Source of the DNA: Xestospongia bergquistia | Lineage: Eukaryota; Porifera; Demospongiae; Haplosclerida; Petrosiidae | Reading direction: 5' to 3' | DNA: 64,000 nucleotides | Assembly (NCBI GenBank): GCA_963965975.1 | Contig: OZ014424.1 | Coordinates: 186,001 to 250,000, forward strand | Shown: piece by piece, positions 10,212 to 63,635 of the stretch | Layout of the letters: each line of letters opens with the position of its first letter | Position numbering within the stretch: the first letter of the stretch is position 1 | Notes under the pieces: generated by a model | Databases searched by the model: none | The model's input: only the letters and a program-made list of their open reading frames with translations | Told to the model about the DNA's origin: nothing | Translations under genes and position numbers: made by a program

Positions 10212-12970
10212 TTAATTACTAGCAATCTCGTTACACACATCACATATATTGGTATTGTTATAATTTTCGTTCATACAATAATAACAAGTCCATTGTTTTT
10301 GAGGTACAGATATAATAAAAGGGGGTGTGGTATTGGACGGTTTCACAATTGGACTGGATAATGAATCTGTTTGAATAATACTAGGATGACCACGCTCAGT
10401 AATATAGTGTGATGATGAAGGTACTGTATTCAATGCTCCAACATTACTATAGTTGTATTGAGAAGATGGTGTTACCCAATTTGGTACATTCCCACATTTA
10501 TTACAAGCAGGATTGTTATCATCTCCCTGATTCCACGCTGAACATCTTTGACATACCCAACTGCCATCATTTCTAACACTACCACTATAAGCTGATGCTC
10601 CTGTTGAAGTAAATGGTGCTCGTTTCAAGTGTGAACTATCTGCAGAAACTAACACGCTTCTTCCTTGACCAGCTCTCAAACTTTCCTCGTGTATCCTTTG
10701 TCGTATTTTTTCTCCTTCTTGTTTCCCACCTCCCCACGTTCTACTAGCTTCAAGACTTCCTGACGATGATTCCATGTGTATTCGCTGTCTAATCATGTCC
10801 CCTTCTTGTTTACTTCCTCCCCACGTCTTTCCACTTTCTGAGACTGAAATTCCTTTCTTTAGTTCATACCCTTGATACCTATTTCCACTTTGAGATGGGG
10901 ATATTCCTTTCATTTGTCCCCATTCTGATGATGGATTTCCTTCCCACATCTTTCTAGTTTCTGAAAGTGAGATTCCTTTCCTGGCATCTTCATCTTCTCG
11001 TATTCCCCCTTGTTGGCTGTAAATATCATGTTGTTCATAACAGAGACGAGAAGAATGGCTACTATTTCTACGTGGAGTAGCTATAGGAGGTTTTAGAGAC
11101 TTTTCAACATCAACTAATACATCAAAACTACCACGTCTTGGTAATACATTCTCAGTACTACCACGTCTAGATATTTCATCTATATCAACATTAACATATT
11201 CCCTAATAGTAGGCTCTTTCCTTTGTTTGAATGCTAAGTTGTCTCGACTATTAAGAGGTTGGTTAGTAGGTTGATAGTTGTAAAGCTGGTTATCATATTG
11301 GCCACCATATTGCTTGGTAGGCTGACCATCATGTTGATCAGTACCATACTGGTTGCTAGGATACTGATTAGGAGGTTGGGTTGAATAATAAACTGAATCA
11401 CTCATAGAACTGTCAACACTAAGACCCTTTTGAAGTAAAGGTACTCTATCTTGTCTTGATAGAGGTGATGATGTTCGTTCATTATTAGGGGTGTCTTCCT
11501 CACCAATTTTAAACATAGGAGATGAGTCTGATTGTTTAAAAGGTTGATATAAGTTACGTGTGAAAGAGGTTTGACCCCAAGATGTATTACTAGCAATACT
11601 TGAAGAGGAGGAGGAGTGACGACGCAACATTAAAGCAGGTGAAGGCGTTTCAAAACTATTTTCTCTTTTTGGTAGTCGAGTCATATTATCAGTAGGATAT
11701 GATGCACTCTTGATTTGTGTAGGAGAGACAACCTCCTCTCTGTCGAAAGAACTATTAGATGGATATGAAGACCCGATTCCTCTCATCATATTTTGTAACT
11801 GGCTTTGTGTCATAATGGGAGGTGGTAATTCCAATGAAGACATGAGTTCAGAGGACATGCTATCTTCTAATTGAGTGCTTCCTGAGAAGCCCCTGTGATA
11901 AATATGGTGAGATGAATCAGATAAAAAGGGTTGGTTAGGAGTACTAGTCAATGGAGCTGGTGAATTATAGCCAGCACGAGATGGTGTTAAAGGTCTGTGT
12001 TCAATGATTTGAAAGTGATCACTTGATACTGCATGACCACTCATGATAAAATCCAAACATAGATGTTTCATAGATGGACCTAGTTTTCTTCCTAACATAA
12101 CATGTTTGAATTCAGTAGGAACACCAGTTAATGTACGAGAAAATTTATTGACACGATCTAATAAAAATACTACAACTTTCAGATCTTCATGAAGTATAAC
12201 AATGTCAGCAACAATTGAATAGAGATCTTGCTGAGAAAATTTGTGGAGAATAAGATCAGATGATCCTTGTAACCTCAAGTATCCCATGAGACCAAGAAAT
12301 GCTTCTGCTACTTTTAGTTTACGTTGGACATGAAATACGTAATAGGAAGTACTAATCTAGGGGAAAAAAACACATGACCCTTCAATTAATAATTATATTA
12401 TCTACTATATTAAGTATTGTTATTATTAGTAGTGTTGTTGATATCATGGGATAAAGCTAAGCTGGTAAGTTTTAACCAAATATGGTTTTAAAACTATAAT
12501 CTTCCCATCAAAGGCTTTAAAATATCTCATAAAAGGAAGAAGCACCTGTGACCATAAAAGGCAGTGGTCCAAGTACACATGTGATGTGTGAATAGTACAA
12601 CTACATGCGAATAGATTACTTTATCAATACAATAGTCACTTACTTTCACACGTTTGAGTTCAGGTCTATTTGGTGCTAACAATAAATTGATAGGATAACG
12701 TAACAAGGCCTTTAATCCTTGTTGCCAGTTCTTGACTTCAGGAATGGCATCAATAAGAGATATTTGGTTACAGAGAGGTAACAATGTAGTGAAGACTTTA
12801 GGTTGACCATATCGTGAATCAAAGGTCACTTTCTGAACAAATAATTCCGCTAAATCAAATACATTTTTAGATATTTCTAAATCAGTGAGCTGAAGTTCAC
12901 TCAATTGAAGAACAGAGACAGAGTCTTTTACAGCAGTTAAGATAGTTTCTCTGTCAGAATGATAATCCAT
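10212..12970 (-). CDS. PUB-domain/RanBP2 zinc-finger protein without kinase (paralogue 1)
   Basis: Two exons, 12644-12970 and 10212-12356 (287-bp intron), give 823 residues. Donor AAA/GTAAGT is identical to that of paralogue 2, which supports this splice rather than reading through. Residues 1 to about 190 resemble the PUB domain of SPATA2 and HOIP: YPINLLLAPNRPELKRVK continuing across the junction to STSYYV, then LMGY. The middle is long, Ser/Thr/Gln-rich and disordered, with a repeated TWGGxKQEGxxIRQRIH unit. The C-terminus has two C4 zinc fingers of RanBP2/NZF type, WVCQRC...CNKC and WTCYYC...CDVC. The canonical Thr-Phe ubiquitin-binding pair after the second Cys is absent, so ubiquitin binding is uncertain. 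The stop comes right after finger 2, where paralogue 2 continues into a coiled coil and kinase. No orthologue name is assigned. Confidence 0.75.
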
Positions 12971-13569: not shown

Positions 13570-16500
13570 TCAGTTGGTCTGATCACTTTGAATGCTAGTG
13601 TTTTGTCGGTATATATCAAGACGTTCAATTACTTGTTTCATTATTGGACGACTACTGGGATCTTCTTTAATACAAGAGACTATTAAATCATGAAGAGATG
13701 GAGATCTTGAACGAACTTGTTGTAACATTTCTTGGAAAATAGGAAGGTCTGCTGGAAAACAACAAGTCATAACTTCACAGAGGAGAACACCATAGCTAAA
13801 GACATCCATCTTAGTTGTCTGAGCTTTCTGGACCTTAACTAGACTTGGTACAGACTCAGGAGCACCATATACTAGAGCACCTGCACCACGTGTCTTTGCT
13901 TTGCGAGCTTTATTAGCAGAACCAAAGTCAGAGATCTTAGTCTTCCATTTATTAGGATCTTTAGATTCTAGGAGGACATTGGCACTACTCACGTCACGAT
14001 GTATAATAGGATCAGGTAGACAATGTAAGTAGTTTAGACCTACTGCTACATCACGTATTATAGTCAACATGACAGGTTCACAGGATGGATCAGGGATGAG
14101 TTGTTTGGTCTCATAAGCATTACATAATGATGTATCCATAATCTCAGTAATAATCATAGGATTACCAGATGGATCATCTAATACAGCACCAATAAACTGG
14201 AGGAGATTAGGATGACGTAACTGAGCCATTGTATTGATCTCACGATGTAATAACTGGAGAGTATCTTCATTAATGATAAGTTCATGCATCTGCTTCACAG
14301 CTACTCTCTGTTCTCTAAAGATACCAATCCATATAGCACCCCAAGCTCCTTTACCTAACTTCTCTTTAGTAAGAGTGACCTCTTCATGACTCACTTTCCA
14401 TGAACTGTAGTCAAGTTGTTCTTTTAATCTCATATTTTCCACTGTTAGACAATCTACCCGATGTTGTAATTCTGACTCAGATTGATCTTTCTCTCTTTGG
14501 AGTTGAGTATATGAGGCTTGAAGATCAGTGACCTCTCTTTGAAGATGTTGTTTTTCTTTGTCAAGTTGTTGTATCTGTATCTCAAAGCTATGTTTCTGAA
14601 TCTTCAGATTTTTTTTTCCTTTTTTTAGTGACTTTTTTTCAAATTGAAGACTATCAATTAAAGTCTGAAGTTGTACATTTTTTTCTTGTAGCTTCGTCTT
14701 TTCATTTTCAAACTCCCTCTCTTGTTTTGTTAACTCTACACTATAAATCTCATTACAACCATCACATATATTTGTATTATTATAATTTTCATTCATGCAA
14801 TAATAACACGTCCAGTGTTGTGCTCCAACTTTAGACGTTAAATATAGTGAACCTTTACATGTTGTAGATGGTCTTGGTGAGATTTTATATAGTGCAGGTG
14901 TAGATGGCCTTGGTAATGAGGTTACAGTATGATGTCCACTAGGATACTGAATGCCGGGTTCCATAAGACTGCTTGCACTATGACTCCTTTGTTGCACATG
15001 AAATCGATTATTTGTTGATTGAGGAGGTGATGAGTCTACTGTACCATAGGCCTGTATATCCAAAAGACTGTCAATACTGTGACCTTTAAGTAATCCATGA
15101 TGTGTTGATTGAGATGATGAGTTAAACTGAAGTGAGATTCCTTTCGTGGCTTCTTGAACTACTTCATCTATATCAACATTAACATATTTCCTAATAGTAG
15201 GCTCTTTATTTTGTTTGAGTGTTAAGTTGTCTCGACTATTAAGAGGATAGTTGCAAGTATTTGAAAGCTGGTTACCATAGTGACTATCATATTGGTTACT
15301 GTAGCGACTATCATATTGGCTACCATATTGGTTGGTAGGCTGGTTATATTGACCGTCATACTGGTAAGTAGCATACCGGTTGCTAGGATATTGACTAGAA
15401 GGTTGGGTTGAATAATAAGCTGAATCACTCATAGAACTGCCAACACTAAGACCCTTTTGAAGTAATGGTACTCTACCTTGTCTTGATAGAGGTGGTGATG
15501 TTCGTTCATTATAAGGGCTGTCTTCCATACCAATTTTAAACATAGGAGATGATTCTGATTGTTTAAATGGTTGATATAAGTTACGTGTAAAGGAGGTTTG
15601 ACCCCAAGATGAGCCCGACGAGCCTGATGAACCAGAACTGTCAGAGTGGCGGCGTAACATTGAAGCAGTAAAAGGCGTCTTTTCAAAACTACTTTCTCTT
15701 TCTGGTAGTTGCACGGTATTAGGATATGATCCACTCTTAGTTCGTTTTGGGAGGATGACCTCTCTATATAAAGGACTATTATTAGATGGGTATGAAGATT
15801 CTCTTCCTCTCATCATAGATTGTAACTGACTTTGCGTCATAATAGGAGGTGGTAACTCAAATGAAGAGGACGGGCTATCATCTAACTGAAGTCCTAATAT
15901 ATCGTAATTTTTACTAGATGGTGTTAAAGTTCTTTGTTCACTGATTTGAGAGTGATCACTTGATACTACATGACCACTCATGATAAAATCCAAACATGGC
16001 TGTTTCATAGGTGGACCTAATTTTCTTGCTAACATGACATGTCTGAATTCAGTAGGAACACGAGACCATTTAGAGACATGATCTAATAAAAATAGTATAA
16101 TTTTTAGATCTTCATGAAGTATAACAATATCAGCAACAATTGAATAAAGATCTTGCTGAGAAAGCTTATGGAGAATAAGATCAGATGATCCTTGTAATCT
16201 GAAGTATCCCATGAGATTGAGAAATTCTTCTGCCACTTTCAGCTTACGTTGGACTTGAAACACGTAATAGGAAGTACTAACCTGGGAGAAAATAAATGTA
16301 CTTATATTTATCAATACAATAGTCACTTACTTTCACACGTTTGAGTTCAGGTCTATTTGGTGCTAACAATAAATTGATAGGATAACGTAACAAGGCCTTT
16401 AATCCTTGTTGCCAGTTCTTGACTTCAGGAATAGCATCATTAAGAGATATTTGGTTACAGAGAGGTAGCAATGTAGTGAAGACTTTAGGCTGACCATATC

Positions 16501-19374: not shown

Positions 19375-21030
19375 TTGTTATTAAAATGCTAAGTATTATT
19401 ATTAATTCCATTTCATATTAAAGTGTGGTTTTCTTTGCAGGCTACTTAGACATTTTCCTCTTAAACCTTAAATTTGCATGGATGGGCCAGCCTAACATTT
19501 TATATTCACATTTTAAGACCGACCAGTTCTATTGACATTTCGTCCAAGTAATTTAAATAGATTTTTTAAAACAAAAATATATAAATAGATTATGAAAAGA
19601 AAAACAAAAAAAAACCCTTGTGTGTTGCCCAAACGATTCCTACTCGCTCACCCACTCAGGCTTCCACTTAGGCTCCAGGATTCCCTGCTATTGCTAGCTG
19701 GGACCGCCACCTGGCTTGGTAACCCTCGTCTTCGCGAGGTAATCCTGGCTGGAGCGTCGCCCTAACTTAAAACCAGCCGTACGGGATTCCAGCTCTTAGG
19801 GAATTTCGCATTCAGGAACCGGGAACCACAAATACACCAGCCTCATCTCGTTTAAAGGGAGACTACCAGCCCTATCCTAGTCGGCCTTTCGGATACTCCG
19901 TAGAGTATGCTGGTAACCATCTCAGAGGTCTGATGCATTGCAGAACGCTGGCCCACAACACACTGGCACTCATGACTGTTTCAGTTTCTTTTTATATGTA
20001 CGTCAGATTTTCTCTTCATGCTCTTGTGGGGCGCGTCGATCAGCGCTATGAATCTCATTAACGGCTGTTATGACTCGATGGAGTAAGAATGAACTAAAAC
20101 TATATTTTAAAGGTCAGGAATAAAACTAGTCTTATTTAAACAAACTAGAACAATACTAATCCTATTAATTTTTTATCATTCTTATATTAAGCCACTCACA
20201 ATTCAAATTACATGTTTACACTATATCAAATGCTAAGCTATTACATTCAAAATAGTTTAAAAAGGACACATTTTAAACATCATCTAACTTCTACTTTTTT
20301 TATGAAGTTAGTTATATAGGTCCTTGTTAAGTAATGTTATTATTACTGCTCAAAAATATTGCGTTTCATATTTAAAAATCTTTATATAATGTCCTTTGTT
20401 CTACTAATAAATGTACATGTAAATTAATGAACCTGTTTAGTTTTTTTAAAGACTTTAACATCATTTCTGAACGCAAACAATTACTCTACTTAACAAGGAC
20501 CTATATAGCTAACTTCATAAAAAATTTGAAGTGATTTCGCTACCTATCATCTTAAGCCATTTTTAGCTCAATACCAATGGACCAAAAGGTTAAAAATTGA
20601 GAATTTAGTTCATTTCACCAAATCAGTTAAAATTTTTTGTGGAGTTAGCTACAGAGGTTCTTGTTAAGTGACATTAGTATTACTGCTCTAAAATGTTGTG
20701 TTTCATATTTAAAAATATTTATATAATGTCCTTTGTTCTACTAGTAAATGTACATGGAAATTAATGGATCTTTTTAGTTTTTTTTTTTACAGACTTTAAC
20801 AACAGTTCTGAACACAAACAATTACTTTACTTAACAAGGACCTATATAGCTAACTTCATAAAAAATTTGAAGTGATTTTGCTGCCTCTCATCTTAGGCTA
20901 TTTTTAGCTTAATACCATGGACCAAACGTTAAAAATTGAGAATTTGGTCAACATCACCAAATTACTTGAAAAGTTTTGTGGAGTTAGCTATATAGGTCCT
21001 TGTTAAGTGACAATAGTATTACTGCTCTAA
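19375..21030 (-). repeat. Dispersed repeat, copy A, with TIR-bounded 340-bp sub-units
   Basis: Matches 61000-62330 in the opposite orientation. It contains the 344-bp conserved core (19620-19963), an AT-rich segment to about 20300, then tandem units of about 340 bp starting at 20301, 20640 and 20981 (the last truncated). The unit 20301-20519 is bounded by 33-bp inverted repeats with one mismatch, TATGAAGTTAG...TTGTTAAGTA, like a small non-autonomous DNA transposon with TA ends. No transposase is seen. Confidence 0.8.
19620..19963 (-). ncRNA. Candidate small structured RNA, core of repeat copy A
   Basis: GC-rich 344-bp block, identical to 61475-61818 except for one base. On the minus strand a TATAAAAA box (19989-19996) lies 26 bp upstream. 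The ends GTGTGTTG and CAACACAC are complementary, and the coding-strand T9 tract (A9 at 19606-19614) follows 5 bp after. This looks like an RNA polymerase III gene with an external promoter, or a SINE-like element. No known RNA was matched. Confidence 0.35.
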
Positions 21031-21046
21031 TATGTTACCAAAATGT

Positions 21047-60668: not shown

Positions 60669-63635
60669 TTATTCTAAGCCATTTAGTTCATCTAATTGTT
60701 CCTCTTCTGTAATGCTGCTCATAAACTCCACCCATCTGTTCTTATTAAGGTTATTCACGAGTCTTCCAAGTAATCCAACCCTCATCCCTTGTATTGTTAA
60801 CAAAACTCCTGCTATAGCAACACATGCCCACAAGGTGGGATCTTTATAAAGAGGAGAAGATCGAGTTATGGTCATTGTTGTAGCTGGTCCTTTAGAATAA
60901 AACATTTTGATAACGAAATGGTGTTCAAAAACATCAATTTATTTTAATATAAAGTGATCATTAATATATATAATGCAGCTACACTGTATCCAAACTAAAT
61001 GTCATAATTTTCATGTACATTTACTAGTAGAACAAAGGGCATTATATAAATATTTTTAACAAAAATGTAATGGAACATTTTAGAGCAGTAATACTAATGT
61101 CACTTAACAAGGACTTATATAGATGGCAACTCCATAAAAAAGTGGAATTTAGATGATGTTTAGAGTGTGTTCTTTTTTAAGCCATTTTGAATGTGATAGC
61201 TTAGCATTTGATATAGTGTAAACTTGTAATTTGAACTATGAGTGGTTTAATATAAGAATGACAAAAAATTAATAGCATTAGTACTGTTCTAGTTTGCTTA
61301 AACAGGACCTAGCTTTATTCTTCACCTTTAAAATATAGTTTTAGTTCATTCTTACTCCATGGAGTCATAACAGCCATTAATGAGATTCATAGCGCTGATC
61401 GACGCGCCCCACAAGAGCATGAAGGGAAAATCTGACGTACATATAAAAAGAAACCAAAGCAGTCATGAGTGCCAGTGTGTTGTGGGCCAGCGTTCTGCAA
61501 TGCATCAGACCTCTGAGATGGTTACCAGCATACTCTACGGAGTATCCGAAAGGCCGACTAGGATAGGGCTGGTAGTCTCCCTTTAAACGAGATGAGGCTG
61601 GTGTATTTGTGGTTCCCGGTTCCTGAATGCGACATTCCCTAAGAGCTGGAATCCCGTACGGCTGGTTTTAAGTTAGGGCGACGCTCCAGCCAGGATTACC
61701 TCGCGAAGACGAGGGTTACCAAGCCAGGTGGCGGTCCCAGCTAGCAATAGCAGGGAATCCTGGAGCCTAAGTGGAAGCCTGAGTGGGTGAGCGAGTAGGA
61801 ATCGTTTGGGCAACACACAAGGGTTTTTTTTTGTTTTTTCATAATTTTTTTTGTTTTTTCATAGTCTATTTATATTATATTTTGTTTTTTAAAAAAATCT
61901 ATTTAAATTACTGGGAATAAATGTCAATAGACCTGGCCAGCTTTAAAATGTAAATATAGAATGTTAGGCTGGCCCATCAGTGCAAATTTAAGGTTTAAGA
62001 GGAAAATGTCTAAGCAGCTTGCAAAGAAAACCATACTTTAATATGAAATGGAATTAATAATGATATTTATTCAGCATTTATAACAATTTACATGCAGAAA
62101 TTTTTTTATGAAGTTAGCTATATAGGTCTTTGCTAAGTAGAGTAATTGTTTGTGCTCAGAAATGTTATTAAAATCTGTAAAAAAAACCTAAAAAGATTCA
62201 TTAATTTACATGTAAATTTACTAGTAAAACAAAGGACATTATATAAAGATTTTTAAACATGTAATATAACATTTTAGAGCAGTAATACTAATGTCACTTA
62301 ACAAGGACCTATATAGCTAATTTTATTAAAATTCAAGTGATTTGGTAACGTGGACCAAATTCTTAATCTTTAATTCAGATCATGATAGTTTTTGATATTG
62401 TAGGTAAAAATTGAAGTGACTATAAAATATTAATTCACAGAATACAAATCAATACATTTTAGTACAAAATGGTCATTGCTATATATGAATATATATTTTT
62501 ACTATGTTTAACTGGACTTACTGGTTTTCATTTCTGGAAAGAGCAATCGTCTGATATTGTCACAATATTCAGATAAATTTCTCAATGAGTTTAACTTAAG
62601 TTGTAATTGATTGTTGCCTGGCAACTGATATTGAGCAATTAATTCCAAGTACCCATATACAAGTGCATCCAATGAACTGGGACTAGAGATATTTGTCATA
62701 GTAACAAACTAATAATTTAAAGAGTGGGTGGATACCTGGTACCAGAGAAAAAAGTTTCATTGTGTAATCTATCTGATAGTAAGTCTAAAGCTTCTTCTGC
62801 CTGGTTTATTAACTGTAATATTAATTAATTAATTTAATTAATTAATAATAAATATAACTTACTTGTATTCCTCTTTGTTCTGGTGTGATATGTTCAGGCA
62901 AACCAGTTTTCATAACTTGTTGAACTAGTCTATGTTGCCGAGATAGGATATACAGGGTGAGAGGGAAGGTCACCATTTTGCTGTGCCACTTTCGAGTGAC
63001 CTCAGTATAATTTTTACCATCAACCCAATGGATATATAGCTGATCAATAGAATAAAAATGGATGAATAGATGACTAACAAGATGAATGATCAATAAATGG
63101 ATGGATAGAATTAATGAATGGATTAATGAACAGATAGAAAAAAGAATATATTTACTAATGCTAATTTTAGACGATCTGTTAAAAAAGCTGAGTAAGCAGT
63201 AATTTCAGCTAATTGTTTCGGATCCAATTTTCCTTGATCACAGTCTAAACCCTACAATTCAAATGATATCAACCAAATAAACAAACACCTGTTTAATTCA
63301 CTTGTTTCTTTAATTGTCCAATAATAGCGTCAGCACCAGAAAATGGTGTACCATTAACTACAAGACTAGGAAAATTACCTACAAATGACATAAGTTAATT
63401 TTAATGTAGATTGTTTCATTTTAGACCTGTTGGAGACATCCAATGTTTGCATGTTGAGATGATCTGGACCGGACAGTTGTCTCCTAGCAATCGTAGATAT
63501 GTCTAGATAATGAGGTTATTATTAGGAGTGGATTTAATGCTTTTCTTTAGTACTTACTAGTACTTGAAGACATTCAGGATCAATTGAAGCAGTAAATAAA
63601 TCACCAGGATATACAGTGAGTTTAATGGAGGCCAT
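60669..63635 (-). CDS. MTX1: Metaxin (MTX1/3-like) outer mitochondrial membrane protein
   Basis: Start ATG 63633-63635 (MASIKLTVYPGDL). Exons run to 62522, then a last exon 60669-60889. Metaxins are GST-fold proteins of the SAM/MICOS system that inserts beta-barrel proteins. Family matches: YLRLLGDNCPVQI, KHWMSPTG, LPSLVVNG-type loop, IHWVDGKNYTEVTRKWHSKM, FPLTLYIL, SPSSLDALVYGYLELIAQYQLP. The last exon adds a hydrophobic segment ACVAIAGVLLTIQGM and an acidic end, like the C-terminal anchor of MTX1. The phase across intron 60890-62521 fits exactly (one base plus two), supporting the join. That 1.63-kb intron holds dispersed repeat copy B. Without splicing the frame would stop at 62508. Confidence 0.85.
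61000..62330 (+). repeat. Dispersed repeat, copy B, inside the metaxin last intron
   Basis: Opposite orientation to copy A (19375-21030). Contains the end of one TIR unit (to 61135), the AT-rich segment, the 344-bp core (61475-61818), a diverged flank, and a full TIR unit 62107-62326. The two copies lie about 41 kb apart. Outside the core the copies differ by many substitutions and small indels. Confidence 0.8.
61475..61818 (+). ncRNA. Candidate small structured RNA, core of repeat copy B
   Basis: Same 344-bp core as copy A, one mismatch. TATAAAAA at 61442-61449 lies 26 bp upstream of GTGTGTTG (61475-61482), which pairs with CAACACAC (61811-61818). A T9 tract (61824-61832) follows. The upstream stretch GCATGAAGGGAAAATCTGAC is also conserved between copies and sits where a snRNA-type proximal element would. 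I could not match RNase P, MRP, 7SL or 7SK. Confidence 0.35.

What the first reader, a model, noticed from the sequence alone, without database searches (positions are those of the whole stretch)
61442..61832. 344-bp core with 343 identical bases in two old repeat copies, framed by TATA box, complementary ends and T9 tract
Aligned by eye, the cores at 19620-19963 and 61475-61818 differ at one position and have equal length, while sequence on the oligo-T side differs by many substitutions and indels. TATAAAAA sits 26 bp upstream in both, 8-nt ends pair perfectly, and T9 follows 5 bp later. This is the layout of an RNA polymerase III gene with an upstream promoter (as for U6, 7SK, RNase P RNA). 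Known conserved blocks of RNase P, MRP, 7SL and 7SK were not found. Either an undescribed small RNA gene family or a SINE-like element carried in a TIR repeat.
Basis: partly seen in the sequence, partly recalled or inferred. Interest (0 to 1): 0.75.

Follow-up and report, generated by a model that had tools for sequence, protein, structure and literature searches.

The report
Multi-copy RNA gene with U6-type promoter
The window holds two of about 300 near-identical copies, spread over the chromosomes of this animal (probably a sponge), of an undescribed structured RNA gene of about 355 nucleotides that seems to be driven by the same promoter type as the animal's U6 gene; its RNA has not been shown, but so many copies would mean heavy demand for an RNA that matches no known family.

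Summary
The 344-nt cores differ at one base; their flanks differ by 8-11%. A core 30-mer occurs at 296 places in the 146-Mb genome, reversed control 0. The promoter resembles that of the genome's own U6 and RNase P genes: a similar distal motif and a CCCACAA proximal element (CCCGTAA in one U6), 34 nt from TATA in both U6 and three RNase P genes and in 84 of 87 copies. U6, RNase P, MRP, SRP and U1 RNAs are encoded elsewhere; Rfam finds nothing. Two subtypes differ by a compensatory terminal pair: G-C in 46, U-A in 40 of 87. Of 26 substitutions in predicted paired columns, 20 keep pairing (15.1 expected, P=0.0005), but paired and unpaired columns vary equally often. Exact type A copies lie near contig ends (90 of 96 within 1 Mb). 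Best reading: an undescribed, amplified pol III RNA family; transcription is inferred, function unknown. A SINE is unlikely: no target-site duplications, no B box.

The parts
61377..61390 (+). distal element TTAATGAGATTCAT, copy 1
   Evidence: exact; 1 mismatch in U6b, 2 in U6a, 2-3 in RNase P; 3.1% of random 150-nt windows reach <=3 mismatches
61408..61432 (+). proximal sequence element (CCCACAA...AAAATC), copy 1
   Evidence: CCCACAA also in U6b, 3 RNase P and 4 U1 hits; 34 nt before TATA as in U6 and RNase P; 706 places in the genome at <=3 mismatches, reversed control 0
61442..61449 (+). TATA box TATAAAAA, copy 1
61471..61827 (+). predicted transcript, copy 1 (start inferred from the 29-nt TATA-to-start spacing of U6; end within the T run)
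   Evidence: inference
61475..61818 (+). conserved 344-nt core, copy 1 (type A, G1-C344)
61824..61832 (+). T9 run, presumed terminator, copy 1
20048..20061 (-). distal element, copy 2
20006..20030 (-). proximal sequence element, copy 2
19989..19996 (-). TATA box TATAAAAA, copy 2
19620..19963 (-). conserved 344-nt core, copy 2 (type A)
19606..19614 (-). T9 run, presumed terminator, copy 2

Best explanation
Each intact copy is a self-contained RNA polymerase III gene of the U6 (type 3, SNAPc-type) promoter class. Relative to the predicted start it has a distal element at about -95, a proximal element at about -64 and a TATA box at about -30; it gives a transcript of about 355 nt whose 5' and 3' ends pair, and it ends at a T run. 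About 300 near-identical copies supply one abundant structural RNA, most likely the scaffold of a lineage-specific ribonucleoprotein. They are kept uniform by purifying selection on fold and sequence, probably together with exchange between copies. Shown here: copy number, promoter class by motif and spacing, core conservation over flanks, pair-keeping variation, absence from Rfam. Inferred: transcription, pol III, abundance and RNP role.
For: Promoter elements and 34-nt PSE-TATA spacing as in U6 and RNase P, found in 84 of 87 full-length copies, 35 or 36 nt in two more, one without PSE (12 of the 87 had been picked by an exact PSE). SRP and an RNase P-like hit without the motifs serve as negative comparisons. 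Core 0-3 differences against 4.6-56 expected from flanks. 301 of 344 core columns invariant in 55 distinct sequences. Compensatory G1-C344 / U1-A344 (46 and 40 of 87). Core position 63 varies only as the N of a cUNCGg tetraloop, and one hairpin loop is replaced in 6 of 55 sequences by a two-pair-longer stem with a UUCG or UUUG loop. Substitutions keep pairs, 20 of 26, P=0.0005. 296 places with a core 30-mer, control 0.
Against: No transcript data. Folding energy is only mildly better than shuffles (z -1.42, 8 of 100 shuffles as good). Paired columns vary about as often as unpaired ones (28 of 232 and 15 of 112). The pairs tested were predicted from the same alignment, and RNAalifold counts only one pair as compensatory; that change is probably one ancestral event and comes with changes in leader and tail. 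One invariant T4 inside the core (position 192) could stop pol III; the genome's MRP RNA also has internal T4 runs, while RNase P is followed by only a T4. MRP has a differently spaced element (CCCACTA -58, TATATAAA -31), and U1 hits, expected to be pol II genes, have TATA-like words with 1-2 mismatches at -29 to -30, so TATA alone does not separate the classes here. Gene conversion alone could explain part of the uniformity.
Confidence: 0.7

Rival explanations
1. A SINE-like or other selfish element that happens to carry a U6-type promoter and spreads through the genome, with no function for the host.
For: About 300 dispersed copies with clusters; truncated or deleted copies (L046, L095, L102) and promoters without core (L096-L098); decayed fragments of 70-89% identity beside 6 of the 20 copies fetched with long flanks; more 3' ends (347) than middles (296), though the two patterns differ in length and allowed mismatches.
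Against: No target-site duplication signal: longest shared word 6.7 nt on average within copies, 6.5 between copies (20 copies). No B box (best 3 mismatches). The promoter lies outside the transcript yet is kept in 86 of 87 full-length copies. The core is uniform while promoter spacers vary, and substitutions tend to keep pairs; passive copies would decay evenly.
Confidence: 0.14
2. A highly diverged 7SK RNA that sequesters P-TEFb, amplified in this lineage.
For: Similar size, type 3 pol III promoter, and pairing of the 5' and 3' ends as in the closed 7SK model (PMC8406779, passages seen).
Against: No GATC word in the core, although the HEXIM-binding GAUC element (recalled) is a conserved 7SK feature; no Rfam match up to E 10 except three weak hits to other families; hundreds of 7SK genes are not known to me in any animal.
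Confidence: 0.09
3. Concerted evolution of a DNA element (for example a chromatin boundary or origin) in which the RNA is irrelevant.
For: Bias of exact type A copies to contig ends (90 of 96 within 1 Mb); pol III machinery can act as a boundary (recalled).
Against: The compensatory terminal pair, the tetraloop-type variation and pair-keeping substitutions point to RNA; strong conservation ends at the T run.
Confidence: 0.07

Closest known systems
U6 snRNA gene (RF00026), this genome's own two matches
   Same: distal element, TATAAAAG 29 nt before the start, 34-nt PSE-TATA spacing, T-run terminator
   Different: 2 matches (a lower bound: 48 of 15,937 candidates scored) against about 300 copies; the transcript is unrelated and about three times longer. 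Amplified U6 genes in some animals are recalled, not checked
RNase P RNA (RF00009), this genome's own
   Same: promoter motifs and 34-nt PSE-TATA spacing, similar length
   Different: the core has no RF00009 match; 5 matches were listed: 3 strong, one diverged without the promoter, one below the cut-off (15 of 4,174 candidates scored)
7SK snRNA
   Same: pol III type 3 (recalled for vertebrates), similar size (444 nt in fly), ends pair in the closed model (PMC8406779 passages)
   Different: no GATC in the core, no Rfam match, hundreds of copies
RUF6 GC-rich ncRNA family of Plasmodium falciparum
   Same: GC-rich RNA family thought to be pol III-made and dispersed over many chromosomes (PMC6974570 passages); here core GC 54%, window 34%
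   Different: RUF6 has 15 members, internal A/B boxes and lies beside some var genes; here the promoter is external and the neighbouring genes sampled share no family
Amplified 5S rRNA or snRNA gene families (recalled; PMC5437419 seen only as abstract start in the listing)
   Same: many near-identical copies of one structural RNA gene
   Different: copies here are dispersed or loosely clustered with mostly unalignable flanks, and the RNA is unknown

Membership tests
pol III type 3 (SNAPc-type) gene | PSE shared with the same genome's snRNA genes | tested here: met
   CCCACAA in U6b, 3 of 3 strong RNase P hits and 4 of 4 U1 hits; U6a has CCCGTAA, MRP CCCACTA; exact CCCACAA in that zone in 0.26% of random 150-nt windows; full PSE at <=3 mismatches in 86 of 87 copies
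pol III type 3 (SNAPc-type) gene | TATA box at fixed distance from PSE | tested here: met
   34 nt in 84 of 87 copies, both U6 and 3 RNase P hits; 27 nt in MRP; TATA-like words with 1-2 mismatches in U1 at 27-30 nt
pol III type 3 (SNAPc-type) gene | T-run terminator | tested here: met
   first T run of 4 or more after the core is 7 or longer in 78 of 87 copies, 5 or 6 in the other 9
pol III type 3 (SNAPc-type) gene | transcribed by pol III | not testable with these tools
   no RNA or ChIP data held
RNase P / MRP / SRP / U6 / U1 RNA | match to the Rfam model | tested here: not met
   no family at gathering over the window, 4227 searched; members found elsewhere in the genome
7SK RNA | GAUC HEXIM-binding motif (recalled) | tested here: not met
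   no GATC in the core
7SK RNA | binds HEXIM, LARP7, P-TEFb | not testable with these tools
   no biochemical data
SINE | internal A/B box promoter (consensus recalled) | tested here: not met
   no exact A or B box; best B box has 3 mismatches
SINE | target-site duplications | tested here: not met
   20 copies, no excess over the between-copy control
telomerase RNA | template of more than one telomeric repeat | tested here: inconclusive
   best CCCTAACCC-like word has 3 mismatches, but this species' telomere repeat was not determined; sponge telomerase RNAs are described (PMC8480181 passages)
RUF6-like regulatory ncRNA | adjacency to one variable gene family | tested here: inconclusive
   17 flanking ORFs from 13 of 20 loci were scanned (shortlisted 37): 7 have Pfam hits, all to different families

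The most novel reading that the evidence does not exclude
A previously undescribed class of abundant animal ncRNA: one U6-promoter RNA of about 355 nt in about 300 copies, in two end-variant subtypes that favour different chromosome regions, scaffolding an unknown nuclear or embryonic RNP; its copy number is some twenty times the 14 type 3 pol III promoters aligned for the human genome (PMC3499247 passages).
Probability: 0.4. Interest if true: 0.88.

Novelty: new variant of a known kind. Interest (0 to 1): 0.73.

Why it matters
Type 3 pol III genes are few in human (14 promoters aligned in PMC3499247, passages seen). A single unknown RNA with about 300 conserved copies of that promoter class implies heavy demand for an RNA that I found described nowhere (and the paper searches), in what is probably an early-branching animal. 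It also gives a natural set of hundreds of U6-type promoters whose fixed motifs and variable spacers define the snRNA promoter code of this lineage, and one northern blot would test it.

Tried and rejected
Rfam at gathering over the whole window and at E up to 10 on the core: only weak hits to Qrr, WT1-AS_2 and SNORA38, E 2-9.8. An exact 20-base core word in GTDB genomes, an exact 18-base word in viral contigs and a sensitive BLAST of the 391-bp finding in plasmids: none, so no second species was found and cross-species covariation could not be done. Coding: all six frames of the transcript have stops, and 2- and 4-nt length variants exist. Target-site duplications: none seen. Linkage to one protein family: not seen in 17 ORFs. 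A 26-mer of the type A 5' end gave 331 places at <=2 mismatches, but a longer 29-mer at <=1 mismatch gave 111; the difference was not resolved. I count about 300 copies from the 30-mer (296), the 3' end (347) and type A 111 plus type B 157. Paper searches: no such sponge RNA in the listings shown; only open-licence papers are held and the longer lists were cut. The species was not identified; 'sponge' rests on my reading of window proteins and was not tested.

Full report
CHECK. The two cores are 344 nt each and differ at one base. The window lies at C14:186001-250000 of a 146.46-Mb genome in 21 contigs. A search with the 391-bp finding listed 42 places: 40 nearly full-length at 99-100% identity and two short ones at 86%; only 40 of 416 candidates were scored. 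A 30-base core word with up to 3 mismatches occurs 296 times and its reversed control 0 times. A 20-base 3'-end word with up to 2 mismatches occurs 347 times. The 5' end splits into type A (111 places for a 29-mer at <=1 mismatch) and type B (157 for a 25-mer at <=2 mismatches). I take about 300 copies; a looser type A 26-mer gave 331, which I could not reconcile.

CORE VERSUS FLANK. Among 22 copies with long flanks (20 of the best matches plus the two window copies), mean pairwise identity in 25-column blocks is 0.78-0.93 over the first 100 bp upstream and 0.30-0.67 beyond; cores are 99.4-100% identical to copy 1. In 41 comparisons (40 of 231 pairs) where adjacent flanks align over at least 100 columns, the flanks differ by 1-16% while the cores differ by 0-3 bases, against 4.6-56 expected. 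Because 20 of the 22 came from the best matches, I added three further sets: 34 of the 100 places listed for the internal word (all on C1 and C2, all exact), 12 of 96 exact type A and 8 of 100 listed exact type B 5' ends, and 17 exact proximal elements, picked by eye, that had no listed core. Of these 93 places 87 have a full-length core; L046 and L102 are partial, L095 is truncated and L096-L098 have no core. On C1 and C2 the copies without indels mostly differ from copy 1 at 3-7 positions, largely at recurrent sites, and a few are more damaged. Decayed core fragments of 70-89% identity lie near 6 of the 20 copies fetched with long flanks, so unused copies do decay.

PROMOTER. The shared upstream unit is TTAATGAGATTCAT, then CCCACAAGAGCATGAAGACAAAATC, then TATAAAAG. 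Over the 87 full-length copies the proximal element is present at <=3 mismatches in 86 (L079 has lost it) and its distance to TATA is 34 nt in 84, 35 and 36 in one each; 12 of the 87 had been chosen by an exact proximal element. The genome's two U6 matches carry the distal element with 1 and 2 mismatches (3.1% of random windows reach <=3) and TATAAAAG 29 nt before the match start. The proximal-to-TATA distance is 34 nt in both U6 and in three RNase P hits, one U6 having CCCGTAA for CCCACAA. U1 hits carry CCCACAA at -57 to -59, closer to the start than in U6, which is also the human rule (PMC3499247, passages); they have TATA-like words with 1-2 mismatches at -29 to -30. MRP has CCCACTA at -58 and TATATAAA at -31. 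SRP and a diverged RNase P-like hit have no comparable element. Starts of these genes are Rfam match starts, not mapped ends.

RNA. Of 87 full-length copies, 46 have G1-C344, 40 have U1-A344 and one (L110) G with A. Leader and tail change with it, so this is probably one ancient switch. In 55 distinct sequences 301 of 344 core columns do not vary; 28 of 232 predicted paired and 15 of 112 unpaired columns do, so loops are not freer overall. Of the 15 variants seen in at least 3 of 55 sequences, 9 are in predicted loops, 2 form the compensatory terminal pair, 3 keep a pair and 1 breaks one. They include core 63 (the N of a cUNCGg tetraloop), 119, 139-140, 159, 208 and a hairpin loop near 230 that is swapped in 6 of 55 for a longer stem closed by UUCG or UUUG. 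Of 26 distinct substitutions in predicted paired columns, terminal pair aside, 20 keep a standard pair; placing the same substitutions at random paired sites gives 15.1 on average, P=0.0005. The pairs come from a prediction on the same alignment, and RNAalifold itself counts one pair as compensatory; thermodynamic stability is unremarkable (z -1.42). All six frames of the transcript contain stops.

PLACEMENT. The 96 exact type A 5' ends are on C2-C15, none on C1, and 90 lie within 1 Mb of a contig end (26% expected). The first 100 exact type B ends are on C1 (52), C2 (33), C3 (14) and C4 (1), with 51 of 96 neighbour gaps under 20 kb; that list is cut in contig order, so its distribution is incomplete. 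Whether contig ends are telomeres was not tested. Seven of 17 flanking ORFs scanned have Pfam hits, all to different families.

MEANING. The evidence fits a gene family for one abundant structural RNA. Selection on the fold is suggested by pair-keeping variation; exchange between copies, or recurrent mutation, by the same variants (such as 119A) in both types. Function is inferred only. The core is not RNase P, MRP, SRP, U6 or U1, which are found elsewhere; 7SK membership fails on GAUC and on Rfam; SINE hallmarks fail. It works like an amplified structural RNA gene; what the RNA does remains open.

Noticed in passing
G000 C5:8814881 and C5:8816535 (L029): One U6 gene lies about 1.6 kb from a type A copy; the SRP RNA gene found (C8:7416732) lies about 10 kb from another. 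Small-RNA neighbourhoods near contig ends may exist.
   Followed up: no
G000 C5:8258235-8275789 (L031-L033), C5:7906790 (L034): Three RNase P RNA genes spaced about 8.6 kb apart, plus a diverged copy without the promoter motifs.
   Followed up: partly
L018, L020, L026, L028 downstream of core; L100, L101: Remnants of the core's 3' end lie downstream on the same strand in 4 of 20 copies and upstream in none, and by eye in L100 and L101; the mechanism of turnover is unexplained.
   Followed up: partly
L096, L097, L098 (C1): Three near-identical places keep the proximal element and a TATA box but have no core; they could drive another RNA or be dead.
   Followed up: no
61005-61122, 62202-62316, 20297-21037: Short diverged direct and inverted repeats flank both window copies.
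   Followed up: no
10212-12356 and 13570-16326 (-): Two neighbouring genes with similar ORFs (by eye); the second carries a protein kinase domain.
   Followed up: no
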